Positions 1,275 to 27,170 of a DNA stretch of 64,000 nt are shown here, in pieces (the stretch's first letter is position 1; every line of letters begins with the position of its first letter). The position numbers and the translations under genes were made by a program. The notes beneath the pieces were generated by a model that searched no databases, was not told the origin of the DNA, and saw only the letters and a program-made list of their open reading frames with translations. Origin of the DNA: Lineolata rhizophorae (lineage: Eukaryota; Ascomycota; Dothideomycetes; Lineolatales; Lineolataceae); the NCBI GenBank assembly GCA_010093515.1, contig MU001670.1, positions 556,129 through 620,128 of the forward strand. The letters are read 5' to 3'.

Positions 1275-3748
1275 TGTGTATATAATTGTGCCTTTTGTTT
1301 GATGGTCTGTAGGAGCTAAGTTCAAGGGAACAAGGTGTGTCGTGGATTAAGGGTCCAAAGGAGGGAACCAAAGAGATGGACGGAACTACGGCTAGGAGCC
1401 GGAAACGGCAAAACGAGCGACAGATCGGTGACGTAGGGACACGACGTGGGCGGCTTTGAGGGGAGAGCTAGGTTTAAAAGCGCATGAGTGTTAAGAATGG
1501 CCCACCAAAGAAAATGTGTGGGATTCAGCTGCAGGCTAGGATTAGAATTGCGCGAAGATGAGGGTGCATGGTGTTTAATAGGAAAGGGGGAGTTGAAAAG
1601 CAAAGCCAAGGCTGAGCGCGGCTTTTTACAAGCAGAGTGAGGAGACGTACGTGGACTCGTGGAGCGAAAAGGCGGAACTTGGCGGCGCTAGTATTCCCAC
1701 TTCGGGCGATTTGAGGTCTCGCCCAGGCTGCAAAGCCACAATATGTGCGTACGACCAGCCGAAACCGACGAAAGTTTCCCGAGAGGTGCCTTTTTGCAAG
1801 CAAGCGTTTGTCAAAACTAGGCAAGGAAGCAGGCGAACGCGGAATAGTTTCGCGAAACCAACGCGTTCTGTCAGGGGCCGCGTCGTTCTAAATATTCGTC
1901 TCAACACCGACGTAAGGCTGGCCTCCGCCTTGCGGCCACCTCGGCGTACGGGCTACGGAGTACGTACAATAGACGCTCCTTCTCACCACGCCATGCATTT
2001 GCGGCCCCTAAGCTGGGCCTGCTTATGACCAGGCACTCATCTTGCCCTAGCAAGGGGCTTTCCAACGCTCGTCCTGTTTGCTGGGCATTGCAGGCCTTCG
2101 AAACGCCCGGAAACGGACGAATCGCACCCGACCGGGCCCGTCCGCCAGGAACACCCGCAGCCAACCAGCCGCACCTAATCCCTCGCTACCAAACAAAAAG
2201 GCACGCGCCCGCCGAAATGTCACGCTTAGGATTCCCCCGAGTCGGCGATGGTGGTGGTACAGATTACGAAACTCACCCACGGCTCTTCTCCTCGAGCCTT
2301 TGCGCGGGGCCGGCAACAGTCGACCACAACGGGTAGTTGATTCCACGAGCCGGGCCTTGCACTTACCCAAGAGCCGGCGCCCCGCGATGGGCTCCTGCCG
2401 CAGTCTCCCTTGTCCCAGGGCTCGGTCCGTCAGTGCAGGCGCTGCAAGGAAGGACATTGAAAAGGGATGATCAGGAGCCGTGGTAGCACAGCCCCAGCGC
2501 CGCGGTGCACGCTTACGCGAGGATGGATGGCGCGATCGCACTTCGCCCGGAACGGGTCGGGATGCTTGCGCTCTGTGTGTATCCCTCCACCATGCGTTGT
2601 ACATATTGTACGTATGTGTGTACACATGTATATGTGCACTTGCAGCGCGGGAGAGCCTTTATCGATAGGATAGGGCTGCGGTCTCGGCCGGGGGCATCTT
2701 CCATGTGGTGGTGTGGTGTGAACTGCGGACGGCCGCTTATCTTTAGAAATGGCTTGCAGTAGCGGGCGCCCGAGGAGCGGACGATTAACGCGCATGCATT
2801 CCCGCATGTATGCACTGCGCGCGGCCGAAAGAATGAGGCCGTGCACATTCAAGTCTCACCCAATCCACGGGGGAAAAGGGAGCGTACCTAGAATAAGGCC
2901 AGGAAAGCCAGGACGGTACTAGATTGTCCTGCTTATACTTAGATGTGTTCCTCGATTCGGAGTCACGGCAAACCAGCCACAACACCGCCTGACATGTGTC
3001 CGATTGCTTGGGCGCGAAGTGGCTGATGATCTTAGTACATTGTCTTTCGAAAGAATGTCATGACTCTGTGGCGCAAGCCTGACAGTTCGTCCACTTGCTC
3101 GTGACTATCTGACTCACCGTGTCTACGTAGAATTATAGGTTGAAGGTCCACGTACGGTCCCCACACCTAGATACCCACAGTGGGGCTCCCCAAGTCAAAA
3201 AAGCGTGTCTCAGTCATCAAGCACAAAATCCATTCAAGCCAAGCATGTCTTCCATTCGTTTGCGCTATCCACTAGCACTCATGCCGAACTGCAAAAAGCC
3301 GACCGAGGTCATCCATGGCCTCAAATGCAACCAGTGCTCCTCTTTGAAAAGAAACATCCAATTTATCACCGGCAAATGCAGTCCGTCCGCGCAAATCCCC
3401 TATGTATGCAAGTCCACGCTCTAGAAGGGTGATGCAACCATTCCCGCTCTAACCAACGCCAACCGAATTGGAGAGCCTTCAAAGAAATCTCCCCTCGAGC
3501 AGAAGATAGATGCGGTAGACTTCGGCTTTGAAAAGAGAAAGTGTAGTTTCCTCGACCAAGGTACATTTCTAGTGGGTATCGATGCTCCGTTCCTTTGTCG
3601 AGGTGCACACGCAAGACCAAAAGGAGAAAAAAGGGAAAAAAAAAGGACACAAAGGAAACTGCGCACAAAGAAATTTTAAATATGTACTAGAAGTTATGCT
3701 ATCCCTTTAGCAGCTCTCTTCCCTTACGAACCTCGTAGGACATCCAGT
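1275..3748. other. Intergenic region, 2.5 kb
   Basis: No gene is supported here. Open frames on both strands overlap one another, are compositionally biased and contain no recognisable motif. The stretch holds the upstream regions of the 1274 gene and 3' flank of the GH55 gene, one copy of the recurrent TACGGAGTACGTA motif at 1954-1966, and a TG/TA-alternating patch near 2600-2640. Confidence 0.6.
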
Positions 3749-6133
3749 TTAGGACGCGCGCCAGAGCGCGAGGGTCGCGCAGAAGTTGCTGCGGTTGTCG
3801 GCATCGAGCGCCTGGCTCTCGCCGTCCCTCGTCACCATGTTGACGGCCGCCTTGGTGCTCAGGCCGAAGATGGACACGTCCGAATCGCCCTCGATGGAGA
3901 CCATGTTGGTCTGGCAGTTCTGCTCGCCGACGCACACCTGACCGTAGTTCTCGAAGAACGAGTACAGGCCGGCGCCGTAGATGAGCACGTCGGAGCTGTC
4001 CATGACACGCACGCCCCAAGACTTCTTGCAGCTCGCGCTGTCATTGCCGGACGCGCTGCAGAAGGAGCTGAAATCCGGGTCGGCGAGGGCCTGCTGGGGC
4101 GCGAACGGCTTGGTCGCGTCCGGGTTAGACTGGTAGTAGGGCGTCTCGGTCTGGATGTGGCCCATGAAGACGTTCTGCGCGCCGTTAAGCTGGTAGTTGT
4201 AGAGCACGTTGTGCTCAGAGGCGGTGCCCCAGAGCCAGACGGCGCCCGTCGACTCCAGGAGCACGCCGCGCGCGTTGAAGATGTCGATCTGGTTGTGGTC
4301 TGCCATATCGAGCTCGTGGTCGGAGACCCAGAACCAGCAGTTCTCGATATAGGCAGACGCCTCGCCAGTCGTGTGCAAGAGAAGACCCGCGCCAACGCAG
4401 TTCATGTTCGGGTCGCTGTGATCGACATCCGGGTTCTTGGAGCACTGGTCGGACTGCAGGTTGGTACCAGCGTAGCCACCGACGCGGAAGTGGACGTCCC
4501 AGAGGGCGCCCTGGCCCTGTTCCGAAGCGGCATTCCACTGCATCAGGGTGCAACCGGGAGCGGGTCCCTGGGTGCCGAGAATGAGGTCTTGCATCTCCAC
4601 AGCCAGAGCCGTTGAATCCTCGCCGACCTTGATCATAGGCTTCAGGCTGGTCTCGTCGGCAAATCCGTCGCCAGTCGCGAGCAGCATCGGCCAGATCTCA
4701 CCAACGATCTTGATGTTCTTATTAATCGTGATAGTGTCCGTGATGAGGTACGCGCCGTGGTCGAAGTACAGAATCTGATCATCAGCGACGGAATCAATTG
4801 CGCTCTGGATCGCAGCAGTGTCATCGGTAGAACCGTCACCAACAGCGCCCTGATCCTTGATGTGGACGAAGGAGCTAGCGGACAGATCCTCGTACTGCGG
4901 CTTCGTGCGCTCAAACACGCCGTTGTCGCCAATCAAGGGTTGCGGTACATCCGGAACCTCGATCATATCCTGGACGCGCTCGCCGTTGCTGCCAATGTAC
5001 ATACGGCCTTGGGCCCAAGACTTCACCACGCCGGAATTGCCGAGAATAGCCTGGTCCGTATCCGACGCGACAGCGATCGGAGCGCCGCCAAAGTCAACGT
5101 TGTTGATGAGAAGGCTTCCGCCGGTTTCGGGAACCGTGACAGGATCCCGCTTGAACGCAGTGCGGACGCCGATGTGGGTGTTCGTGAACGTGGAATCCAT
5201 CAGGAGCACAGATCCAACGGTCTGGTTCTCTGGCGAGTTAGACATGTCGATACCGATGCCGCAGTGGTTGATATTAAGCGACTTGAGAGTCCAGAGCCAG
5301 TTCCAGTTCATGAAGATGGCCGTCTTGCAGTTGTTGAACGTCAGGTTGCGAGTGGTGAACTGCTGGCTACCGAAGAAAGCGCCGTAGTTGCCCCCGTTGA
5401 ACGTGAGGTCAGCCATGAAGCCGCCAGAGCCGTTGTCCATGAAGATGCCCTGCTGCTTGTTGTTCTCACTACCGTCCTCGATCATATCAAAGCGGATATT
5501 CTGAAGACTGGTCGCTTGGGCCACCTGCCAGTGGATACCTGCGCCACGGTCCATGGGCATCTCCGTCAAGTCGATGACAAAGTTGCGGATCTGACGGAAG
5601 AAGTTGTTCTGGTTGGTGTACCAGTTGGAGCCGTCGTTCTCGTACGGGTCGGCGTCGATAACAGCCATACCCTCGAAGCTCGCGTCGGCCTTGATCACTG
5701 GGAGATCGTTGGCATCGCCGATAAGCTGGGTGTAGTAGTACTGAACGATGGGCTTGCTAACGCGGTACTCGCCCGGCGGGAAGTAGACGATGGCCGGCGT
5801 GGTAGTGGAAGAGTCACAGTTCTGGCCACAGCGGTTACCCTCGCTGATAGCCTGATTGATGGCGTCGGTGTCGTCGCCACCATTGCCGGCGCCGTAGTCC
5901 TTAACATTGCGGAAGATCTTGTAGTCGCCGTTGCCGTTGAACGGAGGGGAGCCGTTGCGCTCGATGTCCGCCATCCAAAAGCTACCAGCGTCCGCAGACG
6001 CAGCAACGGAGACCTCGGGGTCCGGAACAGAGACGCTTGTGGACAGCGGGACGCCAGTGACGAGAGTACCAGGGTTCGCAAGCAAAGTGAAGAAGGTGAG
6101 CGCTGCGAACAGCGCGGCATTGAAGGCGATCAT
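3749..6133 (-). CDS. Secreted glucan 1,3-beta-glucosidase, glycoside hydrolase family 55
   Basis: A single-exon gene of 794 residues. The N-terminus has a hydrophobic signal peptide (about residues 1-28). Two tandem pectate-lyase-like beta-helix modules follow, each opening with the same signature: VKDYGAGNGGDDTDAINQA near residue 78 and IKDQGAVGDGSTDDTAAIQ near residue 425. This duplicated right-handed helix is the hallmark of GH55, whose members release glucose or laminari-oligosaccharides from the non-reducing end of beta-1,3-glucan. The WLWGTASEH segment near residue 635 probably holds the catalytic acid Glu, by analogy with basidiomycete Lam55A (recalled, not aligned). Length fits the family (about 750-800). 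The likely role is turnover of fungal wall glucan or mycoparasitic/saprophytic digestion outside the cell. The long upstream region (2.8 kb) may hold its regulation. Confidence 0.95.
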   Translation of the reverse strand: MIAFNAALFAALTFFTLLANPGTLVTGVPLSTSVSVPDPEVSVAASADAGSFWMADIERNGSPPFNGNGDYKIFRNVKDYGAGNGGDDTDAINQAISEGNRCGQNCDSSTTTPAIVYFPPGEYRVSKPIVQYYYTQLIGDANDLPVIKADASFEGMAVIDADPYENDGSNWYTNQNNFFRQIRNFVIDLTEMPMDRGAGIHWQVAQATSLQNIRFDMIEDGSENNKQQGIFMDNGSGGFMADLTFNGGNYGAFFGSQQFTTRNLTFNNCKTAIFMNWNWLWTLKSLNINHCGIGIDMSNSPENQTVGSVLLMDSTFTNTHIGVRTAFKRDPVTVPETGGSLLINNVDFGGAPIAVASDTDQAILGNSGVVKSWAQGRMYIGSNGERVQDMIEVPDVPQPLIGDNGVFERTKPQYEDLSASSFVHIKDQGAVGDGSTDDTAAIQSAIDSVADDQILYFDHGAYLITDTITINKNIKIVGEIWPMLLATGDGFADETSLKPMIKVGEDSTALAVEMQDLILGTQGPAPGCTLMQWNAASEQGQGALWDVHFRVGGYAGTNLQSDQCSKNPDVDHSDPNMNCVGAGLLLHTTGEASAYIENCWFWVSDHELDMADHNQIDIFNARGVLLESTGAVWLWGTASEHNVLYNYQLNGAQNVFMGHIQTETPYYQSNPDATKPFAPQQALADPDFSSFCSASGNDSASCKKSWGVRVMDSSDVLIYGAGLYSFFENYGQVCVGEQNCQTNMVSIEGDSDVSIFGLSTKAAVNMVTRDGESQALDADNRSNFCATLALWRAS

Positions 6134-8971
6134 GATGCAGAAGACCCTGCTTCTGGTTGCGCGAAGGAAAGTGTGGTAGATGCGAAGAGCGTAAAGACCG
6201 AAGCTTTTGGGGAAAGAGTATCGGAAGTCAGCGAGCCTGCCTGACTACACGAGTAAGATTTGTGCTGTTTTTGCGGAGCCAGTCCTAAAATGCTAGGCAC
6301 GGTACGCAGAAGCGCTCGAGCGGAGAAAGGAAGTTTTGCAATAGCAGGGCGGAAAGCGTGGCTGGCAACCCTTTAAGAAGCGGACGTTGAAGGAAGAATG
6401 CAGAGGCAAGCGAGCGTGAGGCAAAAGCGTTGTTGTGTTACAATGTTGTTGGCTAGAAAATGCTAGGCACCAACAGAGCAGGCACAACACAGCAACGTGC
6501 AGTGGAAGGCGGAAAGAGCGAGAAATGAGCGGTGGGGAGCACCTAGACGGGAAGGGACGACCTGCGGGGTGGCTTCCTGATATATACGTACCGACGTTCT
6601 CGCTCACGCTGCAACTGCCCGGGAGGCTCGAGCGGCGGTGGCGTCTCAGGGGTGCGAGAGGGCAGCACTTGCCGAAGACCAAGCGCGATGTTTCCTTGAT
6701 CCGCGTTTCGTGTTTCAGATAGCCGTGTGTGGAGACCGTCTCCGAGCTGGTGGTTTCCGGCTTCATTTATATATGCTCCACTGGCACTCCTCAAGTGACG
6801 CCGGTCACAAGCGTCTCGTACGCTCTCATTTGCGGTGCTGTAATGCACATCTTGGCGGTCATTCTCCCACGCCTCATGATTGACCTCGTCTAGATATGAT
6901 GTGCCGCTTCGCACGGGCATGCCGCCGTCCACGCTGCTCCTCGGCCCGCCGGCCATGTAACGATACGTCGCCGGGTTCGAGACCGGGGCTGCGATCGTGT
7001 GGGTGCTAGCCGGGCATGTCTCCCGGCCAGCCATGCCTCTCTCTTGCTCCCTCGCCAAGCAACAAAGAGCGGTGCGGCGCGACGGCGCGCGCGCTCTGCC
7101 CGAGGCGCCTACGGACAAGACATGGGCACAGACAGTCACAGGAAATCGAAGGCGAGACCCGAACGGCGCGGGTTGCGAGCGGGCGGGCGAGCGTCTCTGT
7201 GCGAGTGGAACGGCAGCGCGATGTGGCCGGCTGTGCGCAGGGGGGGTTGTGTGGCCAGCGGCGCACGCAAGACAGGCAGCACACGACGTTCAAAGAAAGG
7301 GGGCCCGGCCGCGATGTGTGGAGCACGTTGTCCGGTTCCTGGACTCGGCTGCGGCCCGGCCATGGCCCCCCGGCCCCGCATCGAGTGGCTGAGAGGGCGC
7401 CGCGCGTGCATGAAACGCCAGGTACCGAAACGCGCTTGCTGAGCCCGGCAGCCACCACCAGGGCCCCGCCGGCGCGCCGCGCGCCACTCGCCGGCGCCCC
7501 ATCGGGCCTGGTCAGACGCCACACTCCGCTGCCCCCTCTCCCAGTCTCCGCCGGCGATCCCTGAGCGCCGGCCGTGTGCCCTGCTGGCGCGCGCCCTCAA
7601 TCAGCCCGCCGCTCAATCACGACCCACCGTCTTGCCAATCTCAGCCCAGCCCTGACGACGGCCCGCTCTTTCGCTGGCGCCTCTCCCGCCTTGGACGCGA
7701 GCGCCACAGAAGCAGGATACATGCCCGAGGCATTTTAGCCGCTTGAACTTCATTCACTGCTTTTTTTATTATAGGCTTCGCGGCCCTCTCGCCACCGCGA
7801 AAACCAGCATGTTCCACGGAATTTCCCACCCAACGTCCGTCCTCCATCCATGTCGTTTAGTGACGGCCTATAGCTTGCGTGGACGGCTGCATGCGTGCGA
7901 CTCGCAACCGCACTGGAAGTCGAAAGGGAAAGGGTGATGGTTTTTGCCTCCGCTATACCAGACCTCCAAGAGAAGCCGCGTCGGCGCACCCTGGAAGGAG
8001 CAGCGAGCCTTCAGCCGTCGGGGGTTACACCACATGGAGGGGCTGACCCCGCGGCGCGTACCCCGCCATCGCGGGCGTCCGTCCCTCCGCAAAACCGCCG
8101 CTCGTAGTGGTATCCCGGGGCCCGGGGCTGCCCCCAAGCGCACATGCAAGATCAAGGGAGCCATCACGAGGCTGGCTGGGTCTGGTAGCATCCGGCAGGG
8201 CTGCAGCCCCATTTCGGTATCCTCGGACAGTCCGGGGCCTTGCCTTTTGAGCGCTTCTCCGCAGCCTGTCGTCACGCTCGTTAATTAGATAATTCTGATT
8301 AAAGGGTCCATCCCCTGCCTGTCCTTGCGGAAGTCGAAATCCGAGTGGTCCGAGGCACGACTGATATCTAGCCCCTCAATATCGTGATTCCTGTGGCAGA
8401 ATCTGCGAACTGAAAAGGCCATTCGCTCGAGACGTCATTGGGATGCCCAACTTTTGCTTTTACGCATTAGAATCGCAATTCTTTGCAGGCCTAGCCCAAG
8501 TCACCCGCGGCTTGGGCCGCACCTCGGTGGTTGCCGGACCCTTGCCACCATCTCAGGAGGCACGCTCACGCGCCCTGTGCGCCGAGTGGTGTTCTACATA
8601 GATGCGCGGATCGAACGCTAGGTAGACGACCGACCAACTAGTCCCAGGCGTTCTTTGTCCCGGGTATACCATAGAGGATACAAGCGTTCTGGGCTGTCAC
8701 GGCTGCGTGCCATTTCTTTGTGCAATTAATACGATCGTGCCTCCACCCCGGACCCAACCTTCTTGACTTCCTTTTCTGGATTTCAGTTGTCTAAAATTTA
8801 CTACTTTAGTGCCTCATGCAAAAATGAAATTTTATGTGTCTGCCACGGAGATGAGAGTGTCTAGTCCCTTCTCCTGAATGATCATACCAACCCACTACAA
8901 CGCCGTAAACTAGCTTTCGACTAGAGTATCCCACATTATAGCACATTTCACTCACCTCTACTATCACATGC
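6134..8971. other. Intergenic region, 2.8 kb
   Basis: It contains the upstream region of the GH55 gene and the 3' flank of the aminotransferase gene. The part from about 7000 to 8200 is very GC-rich with overlapping biased open frames on both strands. From 8290 to 8970 the sequence turns AT-rich with stops in all frames. A TATATAAAT-like element on the minus strand lies near 6764-6775, too far from the GH55 start (about 630 bp) to assign firmly. No gene is supported. Confidence 0.55.
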
Positions 8972-11421: not shown

Positions 11422-13227
11422 TCATGCTACAGAGCGATGAGCTAGTGGATGTAACGGTGGCCGCCGAACAAGGGCAACAGACTCTAATGCCGGCTTTGAA
11501 TCCTCCTTGAGCTCAATGTCCACTAGATACACATTTCGGTCGAACAGACTCCTCTCCAGTTTGAGTACAGCCCATGACCCAGTCTGTACAGTCAGCTTAT
11601 CATCGTCCCATCCCAGTACTTCAGTCCTAGATGGATTAGCACTTCCAAAGCCACGAGTAAGGTATCTTTCATGAATATCCTTGATCGTGGCGTCGTGCGG
11701 AATGCCGCATTCGATATGAAGGCGAATCCCATCGTCATCTAACGGAGTGCGGCCCGCCCGAGGACCTCCAATAAAAACGGCGACACCTCCATTCTTGCAC
11801 TCTCGCAATAATACCATGCCTGATGCTAAATTCGTGTCAGGGTGTTGTTTTTATTTGAGTTTCAAAGGTACATGCCACTTACCGGAGTCTGAAATGAGTC
11901 GTAGGCCCAATGCTGACCCGGATTCTTGAAACTTCGCACCAACTTGCGGAATAGAGGAACCGTTTGTCAAAGGCGACGAGTTTGCCACTGTCCGTTCGAA
12001 ACGACGTTGTCCCAGGCTACCAAAATCGAAATATGACCACCTTCGCCATACTTGGTTCACGTTGACTAGCGGTGTCTTATCCCTAATGCAGATTTCCTTT
12101 CGGGTGGCGTTCCATAGTTCTTGAGACCCGGTTCGAGGATTTATCCGGTAGACCCGACCATGGTCTATTCTGCGATAGCATTCCTCACCAAAGTGGTCTT
12201 TTGGAGCCCAAAGGTAGAGACCAATCGCACACCCTCTCGCATCTCTGCAGTTGAGAATTCCAACCCGGCGGTCTGTGCTGAGGGAAACCAGCGGGAGAGT
12301 AATACTGAGGCCTTTGTTATTGAGGTAATATGGGGCATTCTGGTTCGAACGAGACGCCGCAACCCAGATGTCACCTGAATCCAGGAAGTCTTCTGGACTA
12401 TCTGCAAGAACACTCATCCGAGGTCTGGAGTCTTCGGATTGGTGCGCCGTCCAAGCGAAAATGCTTTCGTCATCGGTTGTTTTGATGATTTCCAGGAGGA
12501 GACGTTTGAATGCTCTGGACCCTTCCCCATATATCATCGGCATATATATGTTGAAGAGACCCATGAGACAGTAGGCTGCGTCTTCGACACGTTTTGTCTT
12601 TCTTCTAGAGGCCCAGGACATCTTTTGAGCTACAGACACTGGCTCTGAGCCGAAGCAGAGAATGCTGGCGTTACTGATTCCCGTGATTCTGGAAAGTGAG
12701 TCGACCAGTGTTTCCTTTGTACCAAACTCCACCCACTCCTTGGAAAAGAAACGAACCACCTTCGACGCCAGAAGCTCCTGGAGGGTCCACCCTCGCGTAT
12801 GCCAAGCACTTCTAGCAAACTCTTCCATATTTACCTCCCGAAGACCTGGCTTCGACGTGGTTCGGTCCACCGCTGCCCTTGTCCGCCAAGAAAGCGGTTT
12901 AATAGAAACGTCGCAGAGGTAGACGTAGCAAACTCCAGCTTTTTGGTACCAGCTGAACATTGAGTTGATGGCTTCTTCTAGCTCAGCACTGCTTGACTTG
13001 TCGATACAACATGTGTCGATCCAAACATACTTGTACCCTTCCGAAAAGGCTTGCCTGCAACAATTCCAGATCTTTGAATATCCTTCCTTCTTCCGGGCCA
13101 GTTCAGGACGCTGAAACTCCTCAAACGAGACTTCAGAATTGCCCCACGTATGTGACAATATGGCGTAGTGAGGAGGCGGTTCCGGAAACTCGGCAAGCTG
13201 CAGTGTGGCTACATCGATGAGCCGCAT
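11422..13227 (-). CDS. HET-domain protein (heterokaryon-incompatibility type)
   Basis: Two coding exons, 13227-11883 and 11819-11422, about 580 residues. The intron begins GTAAGT at 11882; two in-frame acceptors are possible (CAG at 11820 or TAG at 11826), differing by two residues. The N-terminal HET domain is textbook: YAILSHTWG near residue 23, a YVWIDTCCIDKSSSAELEEA block near residue 67, then SMFSWYQKAGVCYVYLCDV, and a TRGWTLQELLAS block near residue 145. A second conserved fungal block follows (KTKRVEDAAYCLMGLFNIY, then MPMIYGEGSRAFKRL), typical of HET proteins with a DUF8212-like region. HET proteins trigger cell death after non-self fusion; whether this one does is unknown. No NACHT, ankyrin or WD repeats follow. 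It lies in AT-richer DNA, in keeping with the accessory placement of such genes. Confidence 0.92.
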
Positions 13228-14116
13228 GGTTGAGGATAGGTAAAGGATGTGAGACTGGCAGGGGGAGATCTGAGTTCAACCGGCCGAGCGTCCAATTGTT
13301 ATTGGGAATGAAAATAAAGACTAGTAGTTGGCAACTCAGAGTATGCGATACAAAATATTTTGATTGCTTCCTCATAGGCTGAAATGATTGAAACTGAGAG
13401 TAGACAATGTCATAGTGGCACCGACAGTAGTTGCTCTCAGTCGTACAACTAGGATCATGGTTGATCTTGCTTCTTATGTATTCGCGTTTGACCAGCAAAT
13501 GGTAGGCGCATACTTTTAGCAATGGTGTCGTGCAGGTAGTGGCAAAGTATGACTAGATTTCACTTCACCGGAGAAATTGGCGCTCGTTGCGCCTTGGCCC
13601 CCAACTTCATCATTAGGTTTCTATGGTCACCGGTGGGAGATCGCCTGAACACAATCCCTTTACACACACCAAATGAGGCGGTAGTGTAGGTTAGTATTCG
13701 GTAGAGGCTTGGCCAGTGTGACCGGAGAGGCATCATTCCTAAACGATTGACCGAAAGCCTTGGGTGACCGCCGAGTACAAACTCCGCAAAAATAAAGGCG
13801 TCTTACCTTGAGGTAGAGGTTGTCTGAGGTATGAAAAATTGCAATTGAGCACATACAGTATCAATTGAGGTATAATATAATTATTCAAAATAACCTACGA
13901 ATATGTGTTCCAAATGGTCTGTTTTACCGAGTGCGGTTCTAGTGACAGCACGAACGGAACGGCCGCAGGGGCGGTCATGAAGTAACACGGGAGTTTGGCA
14001 GCGCGGGGCTACGGTGGCGCAGCAGGAGGCTATGTCGAACGCGAACGCACCACACTTCAATTTTCACCGGTGTCTACGCCACGTAGGTTAGCGAATGTAT
14101 TATCTTCGCATACAAC
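13228..14116. other. Divergent intergenic region between HET and coiled-coil genes
   Basis: An AT-richer 0.9 kb stretch upstream of both neighbouring genes. No additional gene, repeat or RNA is recognised. Short frames on the minus strand lack any motif. Confidence 0.55.
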
Positions 14117-19880: not shown

Positions 19881-21859
19881 TGTTGAGTGCTTTTCGAGTG
19901 CGACTTGGGTATCCGGGGGTTAAACTTTTTGTGGATTTGGATGTGCGAGCGATAGAACGTTTGTAGTTTTAGCGTAACGACTGTGCGAAAACTGAAAAGA
20001 AAGAAGAGGAAAAAAAAAGGACTCGAAAAAACAGTAGGAAAGAAACTGTTATGAGGGTTTTGCGTGGTGGTGAGAGAGGTAGATCTGCGAGGGCGTCCAT
20101 GGTGCTCTATATACTCATGTCCTTGGTGCCCCGTTGGCATCGTGGAGGCCAACGACGGGTGCAACCCCAGCCACCACCAGCCAAGTCCTGCCAGGGGAAA
20201 GTCAGAGGCCAATGGTTTATCGCAGATTCCTTTTTCGGCGGCGACGAACAAGGGAGATTGGCTATAGCGATGACCGAAGGACGTCTGAGAATAGCACGAA
20301 GTATGCTTATTCTCAACCTTGTTTCTAGAACAGCCAATGATGGCGGTGCAAGGCAGCGGGGAGCCCGAACGGTTGGTCAACAGGTGCAGGTGCCGTGGCT
20401 CGTGCCTCCCGGAAAGGCAGGGCCCGGCGACACGAGACTGCGGTGTTCGCCATGGGTTGTGGCTGGGGCTCCTGGGCAGGCTCGGCAGGCGTCCCACGGT
20501 GAGATTTTCGTGCTGAGCGGCGTAGATTGGTAAGTGCCCGCCCGTAGCACGCGCGGGCGGCCTAAAAATAAGATCGCCCTGCATGGGCCCGTGCTCCTCC
20601 GACCCAGTGCGCCAATAGGAGACCGGATGGAAAGCTTGTCCCTGCTTGGCGTTTCTCGGTCTTCGCTTCCTGGCGCTCCCGTCGTGGCTTGGCCACCGAC
20701 CCTTTGCAGTTGATGAGGTCAAAATGGGCGTGTCTTCCGCTTTGCCGCATAATTCGCGGCCAAGGCCTCTAGGTTCCCCGCCGTTTGGATGGATTGCACA
20801 GTGCTACATACGCTGCACCCCGCACGGCTGAGCCTCGCGGGAGTACCTGAATTGCGCCACGCGGTTTGTCGGCCGAGACCTTCCCGTTGTTCAGCGTTAT
20901 TCAGCTACGGTCTAAGGCTTTCCTAGACTCGAAATATGTAATCGCTCCATAATATAGCACCACTCGCGGCCCCGATCACAATAGCTACACTTTATGCAAA
21001 TGTAATCGGAGTTATTTGCGGAGAATCTCATATCTGTTGTTATTGTTGTAATCGCATTTTGTTGCCAGAGTCTAACTTCATCTTATCCGCCTGAAAATTA
21101 ATGTCAGTCATTCCATATCCTACACAACACTACGTATGCATCCCTTTTCTCTATGGTAATGTGGCGTCTCACTTTTTTCCTAAAGCCGTAAGGCGATCGC
21201 TATCCCCTGCGCTTCCTTCCATCCTTGGGAAATCTTAAACCATGTGCCAAGTCAGGCCGGTGACTCCGCTTTATTACTACTGTGTACATACTGCGAATAG
21301 GCTACAGAAGCTTTGCTATGACAAATTGACATCGAGGGCTAGACCTTTAACACTCCAGCCTGCGTGGCGGGTTACGTCGTGGGACGCGGGCGACCCGGTA
21401 ACCCTCCTCATAATACGTACTCCGTATCCTGTGGTGCAAGAGCTCTCAGGCACAGCTATGGATCGGATGCTCAAATCACCGAATATATTTAAAGAAGACT
21501 CTATAGTGCACGGAATAGCGGGTACCAAAGCTCCAGTACCGTCTATGTGAAGTTTTGAGTCACACCCAATCCGACAAAGCGAAGGCAGCGCAAGTGGTAT
21601 TTGCTTTTCCGTTCTGAAGCCTCAATAATACGCACAGTTTGATGGGCCTAAGAACCTTACCGAGCACCTGCACTTTCACCCTCGCAGTCAGAAGCCCGCG
21701 GTTTCAATTTTGTGCGGCATTGCCGGCTCATCCAGGTTCGATAAGCAGGCCTTTTTCCAATCCCGCGGCGTGAACTTATCCGCAATGGCCTTGAAGGCCT
21801 CCTACTCATTTCATTGGTTGATTAGCACACCCAAGAGTTCAAATGTCGATGTGGGAGGC
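19881..21859. other. Intergenic region, 2.0 kb
   Basis: It holds the upstream region of the cupredoxin gene, an AT-rich part at 20900-21240, and the 3' flank of the phosphatase gene. One copy of the 13-mer TACGTACTCCGTA is at 21414-21426. Open frames near 20050-20830 are biased shadows without motifs. No gene is supported. Confidence 0.5.
20103..20117 (-). promoter_or_regulatory. Possible TATA box of the cupredoxin gene
   Basis: The minus strand reads GAGTATATAGAG about 225 bp before the start codon, in front of a pyrimidine-biased leader. Position and match are reasonable for a strongly expressed secreted protein, but no transcript start is known. Confidence 0.35.
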
Positions 21860-23778
21860 CTAAAAATCAATAAAACTGCGATACGGGTCGGTTTCGCGTT
21901 TGCTTACCAAAGTGCAGAAGCTGTTGTCCCCGTCAAGGTGCTTACCGTCGGCCATGCAGCCCGGTACTTTCATCACTTTGTCGTTGTATCTGATACGCAC
22001 ATAGTAGCCCTTGAGCGATTCCCTTTGCTCATGGGAGAGTTCGCCTGTCGGTGTCCGTGCCGAGCTCTCGATGACCGGCACTTTGCGATCACCGCCAGTC
22101 TCGCCATTTCCAAATAGTGTTGCCCACCAGCTACGGCTCTCTTTCGCGCCGCCACTGCCGGTCAGTGGCACCGTCGTCGCCGCATTACGTTCGTTGATGG
22201 AGCCTATCGCCGGCATCTCATCTAATTTGCTAAATAGCTCCAGGGCCACGTGGCTCGAGTACGGAGGCCACTTCTCACTGTCGAAGGCACCGAAGCTGGA
22301 CAGAAGACTGGCCAGCGTCGTGTCGTGGCACCCGCTCAGGGCGAACTTGATTTTATTCTCGCCGCCACGACCACGACCCAGCAACCTGCCGCCATCATCG
22401 CCATCGGCGCCACCGACCTCGAGAATGCCTGCTCGGCCGTCGCGTTGCACATTGCCTACCATACGGGTTACGATGTCGCCGACGAGGGCACCGGTTCCCA
22501 GCGCGCGGTACTCGGTGCTTTCCATGTACCCGGCGTACCACTCTTCAACTCCGATGCGGTCGATGATGTTTCGAGCCTTGGGATCGTAGAAGTCGGCCGG
22601 GAGACGCGTCGTGGGTCCGTGAGCTAGGGTCGAGTTGACCGTATCCATGATGCCTGATAGCCGTGGCCGCGAGTCGACCGCAATCCCTTTGGTCGGGTCC
22701 GGCATGTATTTACCTAACTTTTGAGATAGGTAACGCATGTCGTCCGAGTCATTCCAGCGGTCAGCGGCACGCTGTGCAAAGGCACGCGCCAGCTGCGCCA
22801 AGCGGCGGCAATTGCCGTCGTTGGGGTAGAGCGTCTCCTCGGCTGGAGTCCGGGTCAAGATGGTGGGGCTCGGAAAGTCTGCTGTGCGAGCCGACAGCGG
22901 GTACATGCCCCAGAAGGTTTGCTGGACGGACTCGAGCGCTCGCGGAAGTGGAGTTGCGCGTAGGTAGATCATATCACTATCTGAGATGAGGCGAGGCATG
23001 AATCCAAGCTGGTCGACGTAAAGATGGCGAAGGCGCTGACCGAGTGCGAGAGTGGTGGCACGGCCTTTGTCAGTCAGTTCTCCGGGCATACTGTCCAGTC
23101 TGTTAGCTGGATGCCTAGTCTTGAAAAGTGAACCCGAAGTGTGGCAGAGCGCGATTTTTAGTAGACTTAACGTACCACACGCCGTCAAATTGGCCGTCCG
23201 GTCCACTGGCAATCACAGGGAGGTCGTTTGGGCCGAACGTCTCTATTCGCCGACGGTAGTTTAATCCATCGAACCTTGACCAGTCTTGGGTCGACATAAT
23301 AACGCCGGTCAACTGGCGGGCAGAGTTGCAGTATGGCCAGTCTGCCAAGTAATTAGCAAGTGGGCATGTATATCAACTTCAACAATGAGGAGGCGTACAT
23401 GGAGTAAGGCCATGCTAATGTATTATTAGCTTAGTGAATTCCACGTATGTTGTTTTACTGGGAACCCACATTACGAAACCGAGCGGACACCGGGCTTCTT
23501 TCGCCTATTTCATTTAATAAGAATGTCTAAGCAGAGTTTAAACGATGGTTTTTTGGCGTACCATGCCGCAATAGCTAATTAGATTAAAGTAGTTAGCAGC
23601 GCAATGTCTCGGAGAATAAATGGATTCCAGTAGTAAATGTCCCTGGCGCTTCAAAGTGCCGCGAGCATGGAAACAGAAATTTACTGACAACTTGAACCAA
23701 TTGAAGCTGCAAGTTTCGCGGATAAAGCTTTTCGAGCTCCTCTTCCGTATAGGGGCCTCGTGGTGTAAGCGTAGTCAT
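21860..23778 (-). CDS. Histidine acid phosphatase, branch 2, probably intracellular
   Basis: Six coding exons read by eye: 23778-23689, 23574-23562 (13 nt), 23504-23470 (35 nt), 23414-23399 (16 nt), 23341-23176 and 23090-21860; introns 114, 57, 55, 57 and 85 bp, all GT-AG; 516 residues. Joined, they give the family hallmark RHGERSPVSARF (residues 33-44) followed by GLTPYWPYC, with every phase matching. The catalytic proton-donor HD is in SGCHDTTLAS (about 362-363). PGELTDKGRATTLALGQRLR is the usual second block. No signal peptide follows the start MTTLTPRGPYTEEELEKLYP, so it is more like lysophosphatidic-acid phosphatase type 6 and relatives than secreted phytases; substrate unknown. The first donor is GTCAGT. 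An in-frame TTG upstream was rejected as start. It is divergent from the PPR gene, 371 bp away. Confidence 0.9.
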
Positions 23779-24149
23779 TAGGAAATAGACAGTCGGGCGT
23801 GCTACCAGGAGCAAATGAGGCGAGCCGGCAAAAGGCAGGGGTCCTAGATGGAGTGAATGCCAAGGCTTTCTATTAGTATTGAAGTATGCCGAACAAGCGG
23901 TATCAGAATTAAAGGACGCGAAAAGCCGGAAGGCCAGAACCGCTTTTTAGGAGTACAGAAATGCGGAAGGCTGCTGTTGACGTTACTTTGTGACTCCACA
24001 GGTTGAAGCGTCGGCCCGCCCGCCGGTCGGGATTTTGGATACTCCGGACACCGTGATCCCGAGCTCGCTAGCTCGCGGTAGTCGGACGAAGGTAATCGCG
24101 ACAAACTTCTTATTTTCAAGGCGTGTCTCTGTGGGCGCCGAAGAAGCTC
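23779..24149. promoter_or_regulatory. Shared divergent promoter region, phosphatase / PPR gene
   Basis: The 371 bp separating two divergent start codons must carry both promoters and leaders. I see no clear TATA box. Beyond the position no specific site can be supported. Confidence 0.45.
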
Positions 24150-27100
24150 ATGGCAAGCGGATTTGTGTGTCGAAAATGCCTTGCCCAAAGCACTGCATCT
24201 CGCCGCTGTCTTGGACGCTCCCAATGGCTCCCCAAAGCGACGTATTGGACCGGCCAAGCCACACCCCGAGTACAAGACGAAGCGGATCCGGCCGATTCTA
24301 CTACCCACCCAGCGCCCGACGATCGAATCGGCGATGACACAGGATACACCTTCAATATCCCAGATTTTGACGCCAGCCAACTCTCAGTGCCTTCGCTTGG
24401 AAACACTGGTCCTGGACGTTACTCGAACTCCCATCGCAATTCTTCACATGGCAGGAAAACCACTGCGGCAGAGCAAGAAATAGCGAAGGGTTATAACGGA
24501 AGATGTTCAAAATCGAGCTTTTCCCCCTCGGCAAATTCGAATGCCTTCGGACCCGGAAGCACTTCTATTCAAGATCGGTTGCTGAAAGTTACCTTCGAGG
24601 GTAGAGGCGGTCGGGAACGTGGTCTGCAGACTCGCACTCCACGCTATCGACAAGTTGGGAACGATGGGGCAGCGGACACACACAATATTGATTTCGAAAG
24701 CGGAGTAAATGCGGCATCTACACGTCCGGACAAGGAAGACGGCGCTCCTGCACCTAGCAATGCGGACCTCCGTCCTGGTGGAATATCGATGACGGTTTCA
24801 ACGAAGGACATGTCTAGAGACGAAGTGTCACAGGATCATGCCATTGAGGAACTTGACGGGGCTTTGCAACAGGGAATACCTGCCATGGATGCTTGGGAAG
24901 TCTTCACCAAACATTTCGCGCGGGATTGCAGAGCTCTTACACAGACCTCGCTCAAAGGAAGAGTTATACTATCAAAGCATCGGCCTTTCTGGCGTTTGCT
25001 GCACAAAATCACTATAGAGTGGGCCGACTGCAAAGACCCTAAATGGCTAGTCTCGCCTCTGGAGGCAGGCGTCAGAGCTTCCAAAGTTGGGGTCATGAAG
25101 CAGGGTATATGGCTGGAGATGATATGGATCTTACTCTGCAAGCTGCAGATGCCAGCCGCATCTGGAACCGTCAATTATGAAGATGTTGATTCTCGCATTC
25201 CTCGAGAGCTGCTGCAGTTGTGGAAAGCCTTCCTGAGAGATACAGGGTCTAGTTGGAGTTCTGAGGATCGAAACGTTCAACCAGAGAATGGCTGGGATTT
25301 TCTTCCAAAAGTTGGTAGCTTAGAGGGGCAAAGAGGAGGTCATGTCCCAGCATTTCCTTTTAAGCTGGGCGAGCAGTTTAAGTCGATACCAATTCGGATG
25401 CGAAACCACACTGCATGCGCAGCATTAGCGAGCTTTGATGTCTTTTCTTCTTATTTTCAAACAGGCTCTGGGGATATCAGGAAGGAGGAGTATATGCCAT
25501 TCTTGATTTTCCTTTCTCAAATCTTGGTCGAGTCCAATACCTGGAAGACGTTTCTTGACCTTCGGGGTGAATTTATGCGGAGGCAAGTCCCTTATATTGA
25601 CGAGTCATTTAAGCAGCGTTTATCGAAAAGCTCGGCAAGAGCGGTTGATATCCTAAAAGCAGAAGGTATCGCCATCGATCTTGGAGAAGGACTGTCCGAA
25701 GCAAGAAGACCACGAGAGGAGCAAGAACGCTTTAGAAAACGAATTAACGCGGCCTCTAGTGCAAAAGACTTTCGGTACTTGGACCAGATATGGCAGGAAG
25801 TCCAGGAAGGGTACCTCACCGAGGAGCAAGAGAACAATGGGAACGAAGGCCCCGAGAAGCCAAAGAGGCAAATCCCCGTCGCACTCTACAACCTTATCAT
25901 CCAAGCATATATGGACCTTGGACTGCTGAATCGGGCTACGGAAATTTGGAATCAGATGCTTTCCCGCGGCGGCGTGCCAAATCTGATGTTGTTTACATCC
26001 ATGATGACTGTAGCAAACCGGGCTAGACAGCCGAAGGCTCTGGAGCAGCTTTGGGAGCGCATGACTGCATCTGGTGTTTTACCTGATTCAAACGCATGGG
26101 CTGCAAGAATCTCTGGACACATGGCTCAGCGCCCAGAAGACGGTCTCCTCGTGTTGTCAGACATGGGGCATAGCTGGGCTGCAGCTGCCAGAAACGACCT
26201 CGGATTACATTCACGGAAGAAGTTCGATCCTAGCACTGTCAATAAGGACTTCCCAGGCCTCCCAAAACCTAACACGGCTGTTCTCAATGCAGCCCTGGCG
26301 GTTCTAATTCGAAAGAAGCAGAGGGGTCGGGTCCAAGGTGTCCTTTCATGGGCTCGTGCATACGGCATCAAGCCTGATGCCTACACTATAAACATGCTAA
26401 TCCGGCATTCCCTTCAGCATGAGAACACGGAGGAAGCGGTGAGGCTATTTGAAACGATGCTATCGTCCGGCATCGCTCCGGACTTAACGACTTTCACTAC
26501 CATCATTGACGCACTGTTTCGGCGGACCGACAACACAGCGGAACAGGCAGGGCAGCTCGTCCGCACAGTGGTCCGCCATCTCGACTCGCTGCCACAAATC
26601 GACTTCGCCTGCGCCTCTATCATCGAGGGCCTGCTGAAGAACCACAACAACCGCACTGGCGCCGAGCTCGTGCTGCGCTACATGCGGGAGCGCGGCGTTC
26701 CCATGTCGCCCCACATCAACACCATCCTCATCACGTCCTTCTTCGAGCAGCGGCCACCGGACATCGCGGCCGTCAACGCCCTCTGGCACGACATCCAGAT
26801 CGGGCGTGCCGGCGGAGCCGGTCAAAGAGGCGCAAAGGCCCGCGTCGACAGCGTCTTCTACGACCGCCTGGTCAAGGGCTACGCCGAGTGCGACGAGCTG
26901 GATCGCATGATGATGGCGCTGGCGGAGATGGAGCGCGAGGGCATGCGCAGCTCCTGGCCGGTGCTGTTACAGGTCGCCATGGCGCTGGCGCGGGCGCGGG
27001 ACTGGCGGCGCGTCGAGGTGCTGGCGAGGGATGTGGAGGCGGGCGAGGGCATCGCGAGGCATGGCATCAAGAGCTTTTGGAACAGCACCGGGGAGCGAGA

Positions 27101-27170
27101 CTTTTGGGAACTGGTGGCTGTTGCGAGACAGAGAATGGAGGAGGTCGGTAGCGGTAAGGATGGTCGATAG
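24150..27170 (+). CDS. Mitochondrial-type pentatricopeptide repeat (PPR) protein
   Basis: A single-exon gene of 1006 residues from the first ATG (MASGFVCRKCLAQSTASRR). The N-terminus is basic, Ser/Arg-rich and free of acidic residues, as in mitochondrial presequences. The C-terminal half carries PPR repeats with the usual spacing: LYNLIIQAYMDLGLLNRA near 585, then PNLMLFTSMMTVANRARQP, TAVLNAALAVLIRKKQRGR, DAYTINMLIRHSLQHENTE and DLTTFTTIIDALFRRTDN, ending with VFYDRLVKGYAECDELDRM. PPR proteins bind organellar RNA or assist respiratory-complex assembly. It resembles the long ascomycete PPR group to which Neurospora CIA84 (complex I assembly) belongs, but orthology cannot be shown here. Codon use changes inside the gene: GC-rich third positions dominate after about 26480. 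Confidence 0.9.
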   Translation: MASGFVCRKCLAQSTASRRCLGRSQWLPKATYWTGQATPRVQDEADPADSTTHPAPDDRIGDDTGYTFNIPDFDASQLSVPSLGNTGPGRYSNSHRNSSHGRKTTAAEQEIAKGYNGRCSKSSFSPSANSNAFGPGSTSIQDRLLKVTFEGRGGRERGLQTRTPRYRQVGNDGAADTHNIDFESGVNAASTRPDKEDGAPAPSNADLRPGGISMTVSTKDMSRDEVSQDHAIEELDGALQQGIPAMDAWEVFTKHFARDCRALTQTSLKGRVILSKHRPFWRLLHKITIEWADCKDPKWLVSPLEAGVRASKVGVMKQGIWLEMIWILLCKLQMPAASGTVNYEDVDSRIPRELLQLWKAFLRDTGSSWSSEDRNVQPENGWDFLPKVGSLEGQRGGHVPAFPFKLGEQFKSIPIRMRNHTACAALASFDVFSSYFQTGSGDIRKEEYMPFLIFLSQILVESNTWKTFLDLRGEFMRRQVPYIDESFKQRLSKSSARAVDILKAEGIAIDLGEGLSEARRPREEQERFRKRINAASSAKDFRYLDQIWQEVQEGYLTEEQENNGNEGPEKPKRQIPVALYNLIIQAYMDLGLLNRATEIWNQMLSRGGVPNLMLFTSMMTVANRARQPKALEQLWERMTASGVLPDSNAWAARISGHMAQRPEDGLLVLSDMGHSWAAAARNDLGLHSRKKFDPSTVNKDFPGLPKPNTAVLNAALAVLIRKKQRGRVQGVLSWARAYGIKPDAYTINMLIRHSLQHENTEEAVRLFETMLSSGIAPDLTTFTTIIDALFRRTDNTAEQAGQLVRTVVRHLDSLPQIDFACASIIEGLLKNHNNRTGAELVLRYMRERGVPMSPHINTILITSFFEQRPPDIAAVNALWHDIQIGRAGGAGQRGAKARVDSVFYDRLVKGYAECDELDRMMMALAEMEREGMRSSWPVLLQVAMALARARDWRRVEVLARDVEAGEGIARHGIKSFWNSTGERDFWELVAVARQRMEEVGSGKDGR

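What the first reader, a model, noticed from the sequence alone, without database searches (positions are those of the whole stretch)
23562..23574. A 13-nt microexon carries the catalytic RHG motif of a histidine phosphatase
The minus strand reads AG, then CTATTGCGGCATG, then GTACGC. Only this 13-nt exon joins upstream LQLVQV to downstream ERSPVSARF with the right phases (0 then 1), giving LLRHGERSP, the active-site nucleophile loop. Skipping it would remove the catalytic His and shift the frame, so this exon is an all-or-none switch of activity. Automatic gene callers will probably miss it and truncate the protein, as a long in-frame but wrong start exists at 23212.
Basis: partly seen in the sequence, partly recalled or inferred. 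Interest (0 to 1): 0.7.

Follow-up and report, generated by a model that had tools for sequence, protein, structure and literature searches.

The report
Two microexons in fungal phosphatase gene
A fungal histidine phosphatase gene appears to be assembled from seven exons, two of them only 13 and 16 letters long, and the 13-letter one carries the enzyme's active-site residues; gene finders would easily miss them, but tiny exons inside conserved motifs are already known in fungi and plants.

Summary
On the minus strand, 23574-23562 (CTATTGCGGCATG) sits between AG and GTACGC and joins exon 1 (donor 23689) to 23504 in phases 0 and 1, giving LQLVQVLLRHGERSPVSARF. With both, seven exons (90, 13, 35, 16, 166, 1183, 114 nt) encode an unbroken 538-aa branch-2 histidine phosphatase: PF00328, 79.2 bits; nearest solved structure human ACP6. 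Of 4000 shuffles of the gap, 14 gave a phase-compatible exon of at most 30 nt with equal splice scores and 1 gave RHGERSP. No orthologue or transcript could be examined; the second microexon rests on weaker evidence. The 'all-or-none switch' is not shown; constitutive splicing is likeliest. Skipping shifts the frame only from donor 23689: from a second donor 4 nt on (23685) it gives an in-frame 535-aa protein without RHG. That possible catalytically dead isoform is the boldest reading, untested. Fungal microexons in conserved motifs are in print (PMC12940212, PMC11121469, PMC1184071), so this is a new member of a known kind.

The parts
23689..23778 (-). exon 1, 90 nt, MTTLTPRGPYTEEELEKLYPRNLQLQLVQV; donor GTCAGT
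   Evidence: the only Met in the open frame 23593-23946; LQLVQV aligns with LKMVQV of human ACP6
23685..23688 (-). four bases kept if the overlapping downstream donor GTAAAT is used (GTCAGTAAAT, a GTNNGT tandem donor)
   Evidence: use with exon 2 gives a stop after 46 aa, use with exon 2 skipped gives 535 aa in frame without RHG
23562..23574 (-). exon 2, 13-nt microexon CTATTGCGGCATG, LLRH and first base of G; donor GTACGC
23470..23504 (-). exon 3, 35 nt, (G)ERSPVSARFRN; donor GTGGGT
   Evidence: ERSP aligns with ARSP of ACP6
23399..23414 (-). exon 4, second microexon, 16 nt CATGGCCTTACTCCAT, HGLTP and first base of Y; donor GTACGC
   Evidence: weaker than exon 2: PF00328 scores slightly better without it
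23176..23341 (-). exon 5, 166 nt, (Y)WPYCNSARQLTGVIM...GQFDGV; donor GTACGT
21908..23090 (-). exon 6, 1183 nt, (C)MPGELTDKGR...HDTTL...FCTL, main part of the catalytic domain with the HD motif
21688..21801 (-). exon 7, 114 nt, EAFKAIADKFTPRDWKKACL...ETAGF and stop
23575..23688 (-). intron 1, 114 nt, CTAAC branch-like site at 23596
23505..23561 (-). intron 2, 57 nt, no good branch-like site (best CTTAT)
23415..23469 (-). intron 3, 55 nt, CTAAT branch-like site at 23429
23342..23398 (-). intron 4, 57 nt, CTAAT branch-like site at 23356
23091..23175 (-). intron 5, 85 nt, CTAAC branch-like site at 23106
21802..21907 (-). intron 6, 106 nt

Best explanation
The locus is an intact seven-exon gene of a filamentous ascomycete for an ACP6-like branch-2 histidine phosphatase. 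Two microexons, 13 and 16 nt, are spliced in constitutively: each lies between short introns (114 and 57 nt; 55 and 57 nt) that are recognised by intron definition, so exon size does not matter much to the machinery. Exon 2 supplies the nucleophile loop LLRHG; exon 4 supplies HGLTPY just after it. Shown by sequence: reading frame, phases, splice dinucleotides, family match. Inferred: that the transcript is spliced so, that inclusion is constitutive, and that the enzyme is active.
For: One unbroken 538-aa frame over seven exons. PF00328 79.2 bits from profile position 2, against 62.0 bits from position 55 for the RHG-less in-frame skip and 60.9 bits from position 61 for a start at 23089. ACP6 (4job) aligns LKLKMVQVVFRHGARSP with LQLQLVQVLLRHGERSP. 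With splice and branch matrices learnt from 36 introns of the same genome, this gene masked, and codon usage but no homology, the seven-exon chain ranks 2 to 6 in all 8 settings that use the branch term, among 1800 or 2040 kept chains; of the top 20 chains, 15-20 hold exon 2 and 14-16 hold exon 4. Shuffles: exon 2 matched in score by 14 of 4000, exon 4 by 37 of 4000. That intron definition makes splicing efficiency depend on intron and not exon length is stated in PMC8624252 (passages).
Against: No transcript, no orthologue. The four introns next to the microexons are weak: 8th, 6th, 8th and 0th percentile of the 36 training introns; intron 2 has no good branch site. With an earlier, noisier acceptor matrix the exon 4 and exon 5 acceptors rank 32 and 42 of 42 AG sites. 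Without the branch term the chain falls to rank 18-121 in 8 settings, and the best chain then lacks exon 2 in all 8. The chains that beat the model with the branch term, of those printed, use donor 23685 and do not encode RHG. For exon 4, PF00328 scores better without it (84.5 and 81.7 against 79.2 bits), and the motif GLxPYWPYC in fungal relatives is recalled, not looked up.
Confidence: 0.78

Rival explanations
1. Regulated switch of the frame-shifting kind: exon 2 is included or skipped according to condition, and skipping from 23689 to 23504 ends the frame and destroys the message.
For: Skipping from 23689 gives a stop after 57 aa. A 20-nt microexon switch responding to glucose is described in Trichoderma Xlr2 (PMC11121469, sections read). 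Weak flanking introns would allow regulation.
Against: No sign of regulation in the data at hand.
Confidence: 0.06
2. Frame-preserving switch: donor 23685 joined to 23504 skips exon 2 in frame and gives a full-length RHG-less pseudophosphatase (VVSERSP in place of VLLRHGERSP) beside the active enzyme.
For: 535 aa in one frame. Donor 23685 scores 6.47 against 5.07 for 23689 in the 36-intron matrix. The same genome holds at least one branch-2 family member with VAGE where RHG would stand (L006).
Against: Donor 23685 scores lower than 23689 in the first matrix (4.35 against 4.89). Overlapping GYNNGY donors are mostly noise in human and mouse (PMC4267661, abstract), and a GT at +5 is part of the donor consensus, so the tandem is no surprise. 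With exon 2 included, donor 23685 gives a stop after 46 aa.
Confidence: 0.08
3. Exon 2 is real but exon 4 is not: exon 3 runs to 23466 (GTTCCC) or 23475 (GTAATG) and joins 23341 directly, giving RFRNVDWPYC or RFHWPYC.
For: Both are in frame (534 and 531 aa) and score higher against PF00328 (84.5 and 81.7 bits).
Against: Their donors score -0.81 and -0.73, their introns 3.50 and 3.58 in all, against 11.95 and 8.74 for the introns around exon 4. Exon 4 is in 14-16 of the top 20 chains with the branch term. PF00328 spans very diverse proteins, so an extra loop in one subfamily costs score without being wrong (inference).
Confidence: 0.12
4. Chance: the gene uses donor 23685 or another chain, RHG is not encoded, and the protein is an RHG-less family member or a decayed gene.
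For: Three chains without RHG outscore the model at one setting; without the branch term, chains lacking exon 2 win.
Against: 1 of 4000 shuffles gives RHGERSP; the surroundings LQLVQV and ERSP match the flanks of RHG in ACP6; the HD motif and the rest of the frame are intact.
Confidence: 0.04

Closest known systems
1-nt exon of Fusarium CYP621A and 8-nt exon of Phanerochaete CYP5141A1 (PMC12940212; abstract and sections 3 and 5 read)
   Same: A fungal microexon that completes a conserved enzyme motif (PKG; AGHETT), without which the neighbouring exons do not join in phase; missed by gene callers; taken as constitutive.
   Different: There the 1-nt exon is backed by 20 orthologues and SRA reads; here no orthologue or read was available. 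Here the exon carries the catalytic residues themselves, and a second microexon follows.
20-nt microexon of Trichoderma virens Xlr2 (PMC11121469; abstract, sections 3, 8, 16 and part of the references read)
   Same: A fungal microexon of under 30 nt, not divisible by three, coding for essential residues of a domain, absent from the automatic gene model.
   Different: Xlr2 inclusion is shown by RNA-seq to change with glucose; here no alternative use is shown.
Microexons of Phanerochaete chrysosporium P450 genes (PMC1184071; three passages read)
   Same: Microexons of 2-10 aa between small introns (45-55 bp) in fungal enzyme genes; 41 genes with exons of 29 bp or shorter.
   Different: Another phylum and another gene family.
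Conserved plant microexons of 15 nt or less, such as the 9-nt exon of AP2 and invertase genes (PMC8831610; abstract and section 8 read)
   Same: Tiny exon in a core motif; widely misannotated.
   Different: Conserved over land plants; conservation could not be tested here.
Human ACP6, lysophosphatidic acid phosphatase type 6 (PDB 4job)
   Same: Closest solved relative by sequence, E 9.5e-16; shared VQV-RHG-RSP and HD regions.
   Different: No counterpart of exon 4 in the printed alignment; substrate of the fungal protein unknown.

Membership tests
Histidine phosphatase superfamily, branch 2 (PF00328) | score over the curated Pfam cut-off | tested here: met
   79.2 bits against a cut-off of 23.6, profile 2-341 of 354
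Histidine phosphatase superfamily, branch 2 (PF00328) | nucleophile motif RHGxRxP near the N terminus (motif recalled) | tested here: met
   RHGERSP, residues 33-39 of the spliced model, supplied by exons 2 and 3; aligns with RHGARSP of ACP6. Met only if exon 2 is spliced in.
Histidine phosphatase superfamily, branch 2 (PF00328) | distal HD proton-donor motif (recalled) | tested here: met
   SGCHDTTLASLL aligned with AAHDVTFIPLL of ACP6
Histidine phosphatase superfamily, branch 2 (PF00328) | phosphatase activity | not testable with these tools
   needs the expressed protein
ACP6-type lysophosphatidic acid phosphatase | closest sequence relative is ACP6, and acts on lysophosphatidic acid | tested here: inconclusive
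   ACP6 is the best of 7 PDB sequences at E 0.001 or better; substrate and orthology not tested
Microexon (30 nt or less) | size, splice dinucleotides on both sides, compatible phases | tested here: met
   13 and 16 nt, AG and GT on both sides, phases 0 in and 1 out for both
Microexon (30 nt or less) | present in mature mRNA | not testable with these tools
   no RNA data at hand
Microexon (30 nt or less) | conserved in orthologues | tested here: inconclusive
   no orthologue found in viral or prokaryote contig collections, where none is expected; no fungal collection was on hand
Regulated microexon switch (as in Xlr2) | inclusion changes with condition and alters function | not testable with these tools
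   no RNA data; frames of skipped forms were computed

The most novel reading that the evidence does not exclude
The gene makes two full-length proteins by a coupled choice. Donor 23689 with the 13-nt exon gives the active enzyme; the overlapping donor 23685 with that exon skipped gives an in-frame 535-aa pseudophosphatase whose VLLRHG is replaced by VVS. The 13-nt exon and the 4-nt donor shift together change the protein by three residues, so the catalytic loop can be swapped out without losing the frame.
Probability: 0.08. Interest if true: 0.65.

Novelty: new member of a known kind. Interest (0 to 1): 0.38.

Why it matters
If the model is right, the catalytic residues of a conserved enzyme rest on 13 nucleotides that standard gene callers are likely to drop, so annotated relatives may look like truncated or RHG-less proteins when they are not. 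It adds a case of two successive microexons in a fungal gene and is simple to check with existing RNA-seq. If the frame-preserving skip is used, it would be a compact way to make an active enzyme and an inactive full-length partner from one gene.

Tried and rejected
Orthologue searches gave nothing usable: the search for related loci in viral contigs with six peptide patterns, none found; a QTFWGMYP-type pattern in viral contigs, 1 match (L012), judged chance because tblastn gave only a 19-residue match (best E 0.010), and 0 in genome contigs; a RHLYVDQL-type pattern, 0 in viral contigs and 0 in genome contigs.

Paralogues in the own genome: PF00328 found 6 places, one of them this gene; the protein itself found 5 places, four of them exons of this gene and one at E 0.204. 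None is close enough to test the microexons.

Text searches: four peptide strings, 0 papers; 'histidine acid phosphatase' with 'microexon', 0 papers. NCBIfam gave 0 families. Romfo et al. 2000 on S. pombe (PMC86406) is not held; it was seen only as a citation in PMC11121469.

A first splice matrix from 28 intron pairs with a 20-base acceptor was over-fitted; it ranked the exon 4 and exon 5 acceptors 32 and 42 of 42, which I report but did not rely on. The alternative acceptor 23106 region reading WHPANRLDS before MPGELTDKG scores 77.6 bits against 79.2 and was not adopted. In one search the motif count for exon 4 (62 of 4000 with PYWPYC) tests only the junction Tyr and says little.

Full report
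Observation. The minus strand reads ...CTAATTAG | CTATTGCGGCATG | GTACGCC..., exactly at 23574-23562. Joined to exon 1 (ending 23689, phase 0) and to 23504 (entered in phase 1) it gives LQLVQVLLRHGERSPVSARF. The codon before CTA is TAG, so the left edge of any RHG-coding exon in this frame is fixed at 23574; if intron 2 is retained the frame stops ten codons after RHG. The open frame said to begin at 23212 begins with TTG and has its first ATG at 23089.

Gene model. Working out the rest gave a second microexon. Exon 3 ends best at AAT|GTGGGT (23470, phase 0), and CATGGCCTTACTCCAT (23414-23399) between AG and GTACGC takes the frame to ACTGGCC (23341) in phase 1, giving RFRNHGLTPYWPYC. Seven exons of 90, 13, 35, 16, 166, 1183 and 114 nt encode 538 aa without a break. 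PF00328 matches residues 25-395 with 79.2 bits, profile 2-341 of 354. The best solved relative is human ACP6 (4job, E 9.5e-16), with matches over RHG and over the distal HD motif. For the N-terminal 134 aa alone ACP6 is again the first hit, at only E 0.018, with ankyrin-repeat proteins and fungal phytases behind it; the RHG-less version of the same stretch finds no phosphatase (1 hit, Myomesin-1, E 1.4).

Test without homology. I learnt donor, acceptor, branch and codon matrices from the same genome (window with this gene masked, plus 20 stretches of 10 kb): 53 candidate intron sites, 36 used at probability over 0.8. Scored with these, the five introns of the region rank 8, 17, 10, 27 and 2 of 225 GT-AG pairs. 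Against the 36 training introns they are at the 8th, 6th, 8th, 0th and 44th percentile, so the four next to the microexons are weak. Listing whole chains from the ATG to exon 6, the seven-exon chain ranks 4th and 3rd of 1280 kept (two intron costs). All 6 printed chains contain exon 2 at both costs; exon 4 is in 5 of 6 and 6 of 6. Over 16 settings: in the 8 with the branch term the chain ranks 2-6, exon 2 is in 15-20 of the top 20 and exon 4 in 14-16; in the 8 without it the chain ranks 18-121, exon 2 is in 2-11 and exon 4 in 4-18 of the top 20, and the best chain lacks exon 2 each time. So the support depends on the branch sites (CTAAC 23596, CTAAT 23429, CTAAT 23356, CTAAC 23106; none good in intron 2). 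The printed chains that beat the model use donor 23685 and do not encode RHG; protein homology decides between them.

Chance. Of 4000 dinucleotide shuffles per gap, 14 (exon 2) and 37 (exon 4) held a phase-compatible exon of at most 30 nt with introns as good as the real ones; 1 gave RHGERSP. Exon 2 therefore has two independent supports, splice signals and motif; exon 4 has the first only, plus a motif (GLxPYWPYC) that I recall from fungal relatives and could not look up. PF00328 itself scores better without exon 4 (84.5 and 81.7 bits), though the donors needed for that are very poor (-0.81 and -0.73).

What skipping would do. From 23689 to 23504: stop after 57 aa. From 23685 with exon 2 kept: stop after 46 aa. 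From 23685 to 23504: 535 aa in frame, VVSERSP in place of VLLRHGERSP, which Pfam still matches with 62.0 bits but only from profile position 55. The two donors overlap as GTCAGTAAAT; 23685 scores higher in the second matrix (6.47 to 5.07) and lower in the first (4.35 to 4.89). Such GYNNGY donors are mostly noise in human and mouse (PMC4267661, abstract). Skipping exon 4 from 23470 gives a stop after 56 aa.

How it most likely works. Short introns are recognised as units, so a 13-nt exon between a 114-nt and a 57-nt intron needs no exon-bound help; PMC8624252 (passages) states that under intron definition efficiency depends on intron and not exon length. I take inclusion to be constitutive because the enzyme is useless without RHG and because the skip introns (184 or 180 nt) exceed every training intron (longest 154 nt; the search stopped at 160). 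This is inference.

Organism and surroundings. The assembly has 31.0 Mb in 48 contigs and no relatives in the held set. A HET-domain gene lies at 11854-13275; that this domain marks Pezizomycotina is recalled. The next gene upstream, on the other strand, codes for a PPR protein (24096-27167).

Known or new. Fungal microexons are in print: a 1-nt exon in Fusarium CYP621A and an 8-nt exon in a Phanerochaete P450 motif (PMC12940212), a 20-nt glucose-dependent exon in Trichoderma Xlr2 (PMC11121469), and many in Phanerochaete P450 genes (PMC1184071). No held paper has both 'histidine acid phosphatase' and 'microexon', which says little about papers that are not held. I rate this a new member of a known kind.

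Noticed in passing
window 23685-23689, minus strand: Two overlapping donors (GTCAGTAAAT) 4 nt apart at the end of exon 1; the choice decides whether exon 2 or its skipping keeps the frame.
   Followed up: yes
L006 (G000:C3), 1501-1902, minus strand: A branch-2 family member in the same genome (PF00328, E 4.1e-6) reads VVYTVAGEATP where VxxRHGxRTP would be expected: perhaps a natural RHG-less member.
   Followed up: partly
L005 (G000:C14), about 1208: Another family member (SRHGD) seems to have a GTACGT donor directly after the RHGD codons, so an intron close to the catalytic motif recurs in this genome; the exact intron was not tested.
   Followed up: no
window 11854-13275, minus strand: HET-domain protein (PF06985), a self/non-self recognition type of gene.
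   Followed up: no
window 3752-6244, minus strand: Open frame of 831 aa with a rhamnogalacturonase/pectate-lyase-like domain (PF12708, 2.7e-103).
   Followed up: no
window 24096-27167, plus strand: Large PPR-repeat protein divergently placed next to the phosphatase gene.
   Followed up: no
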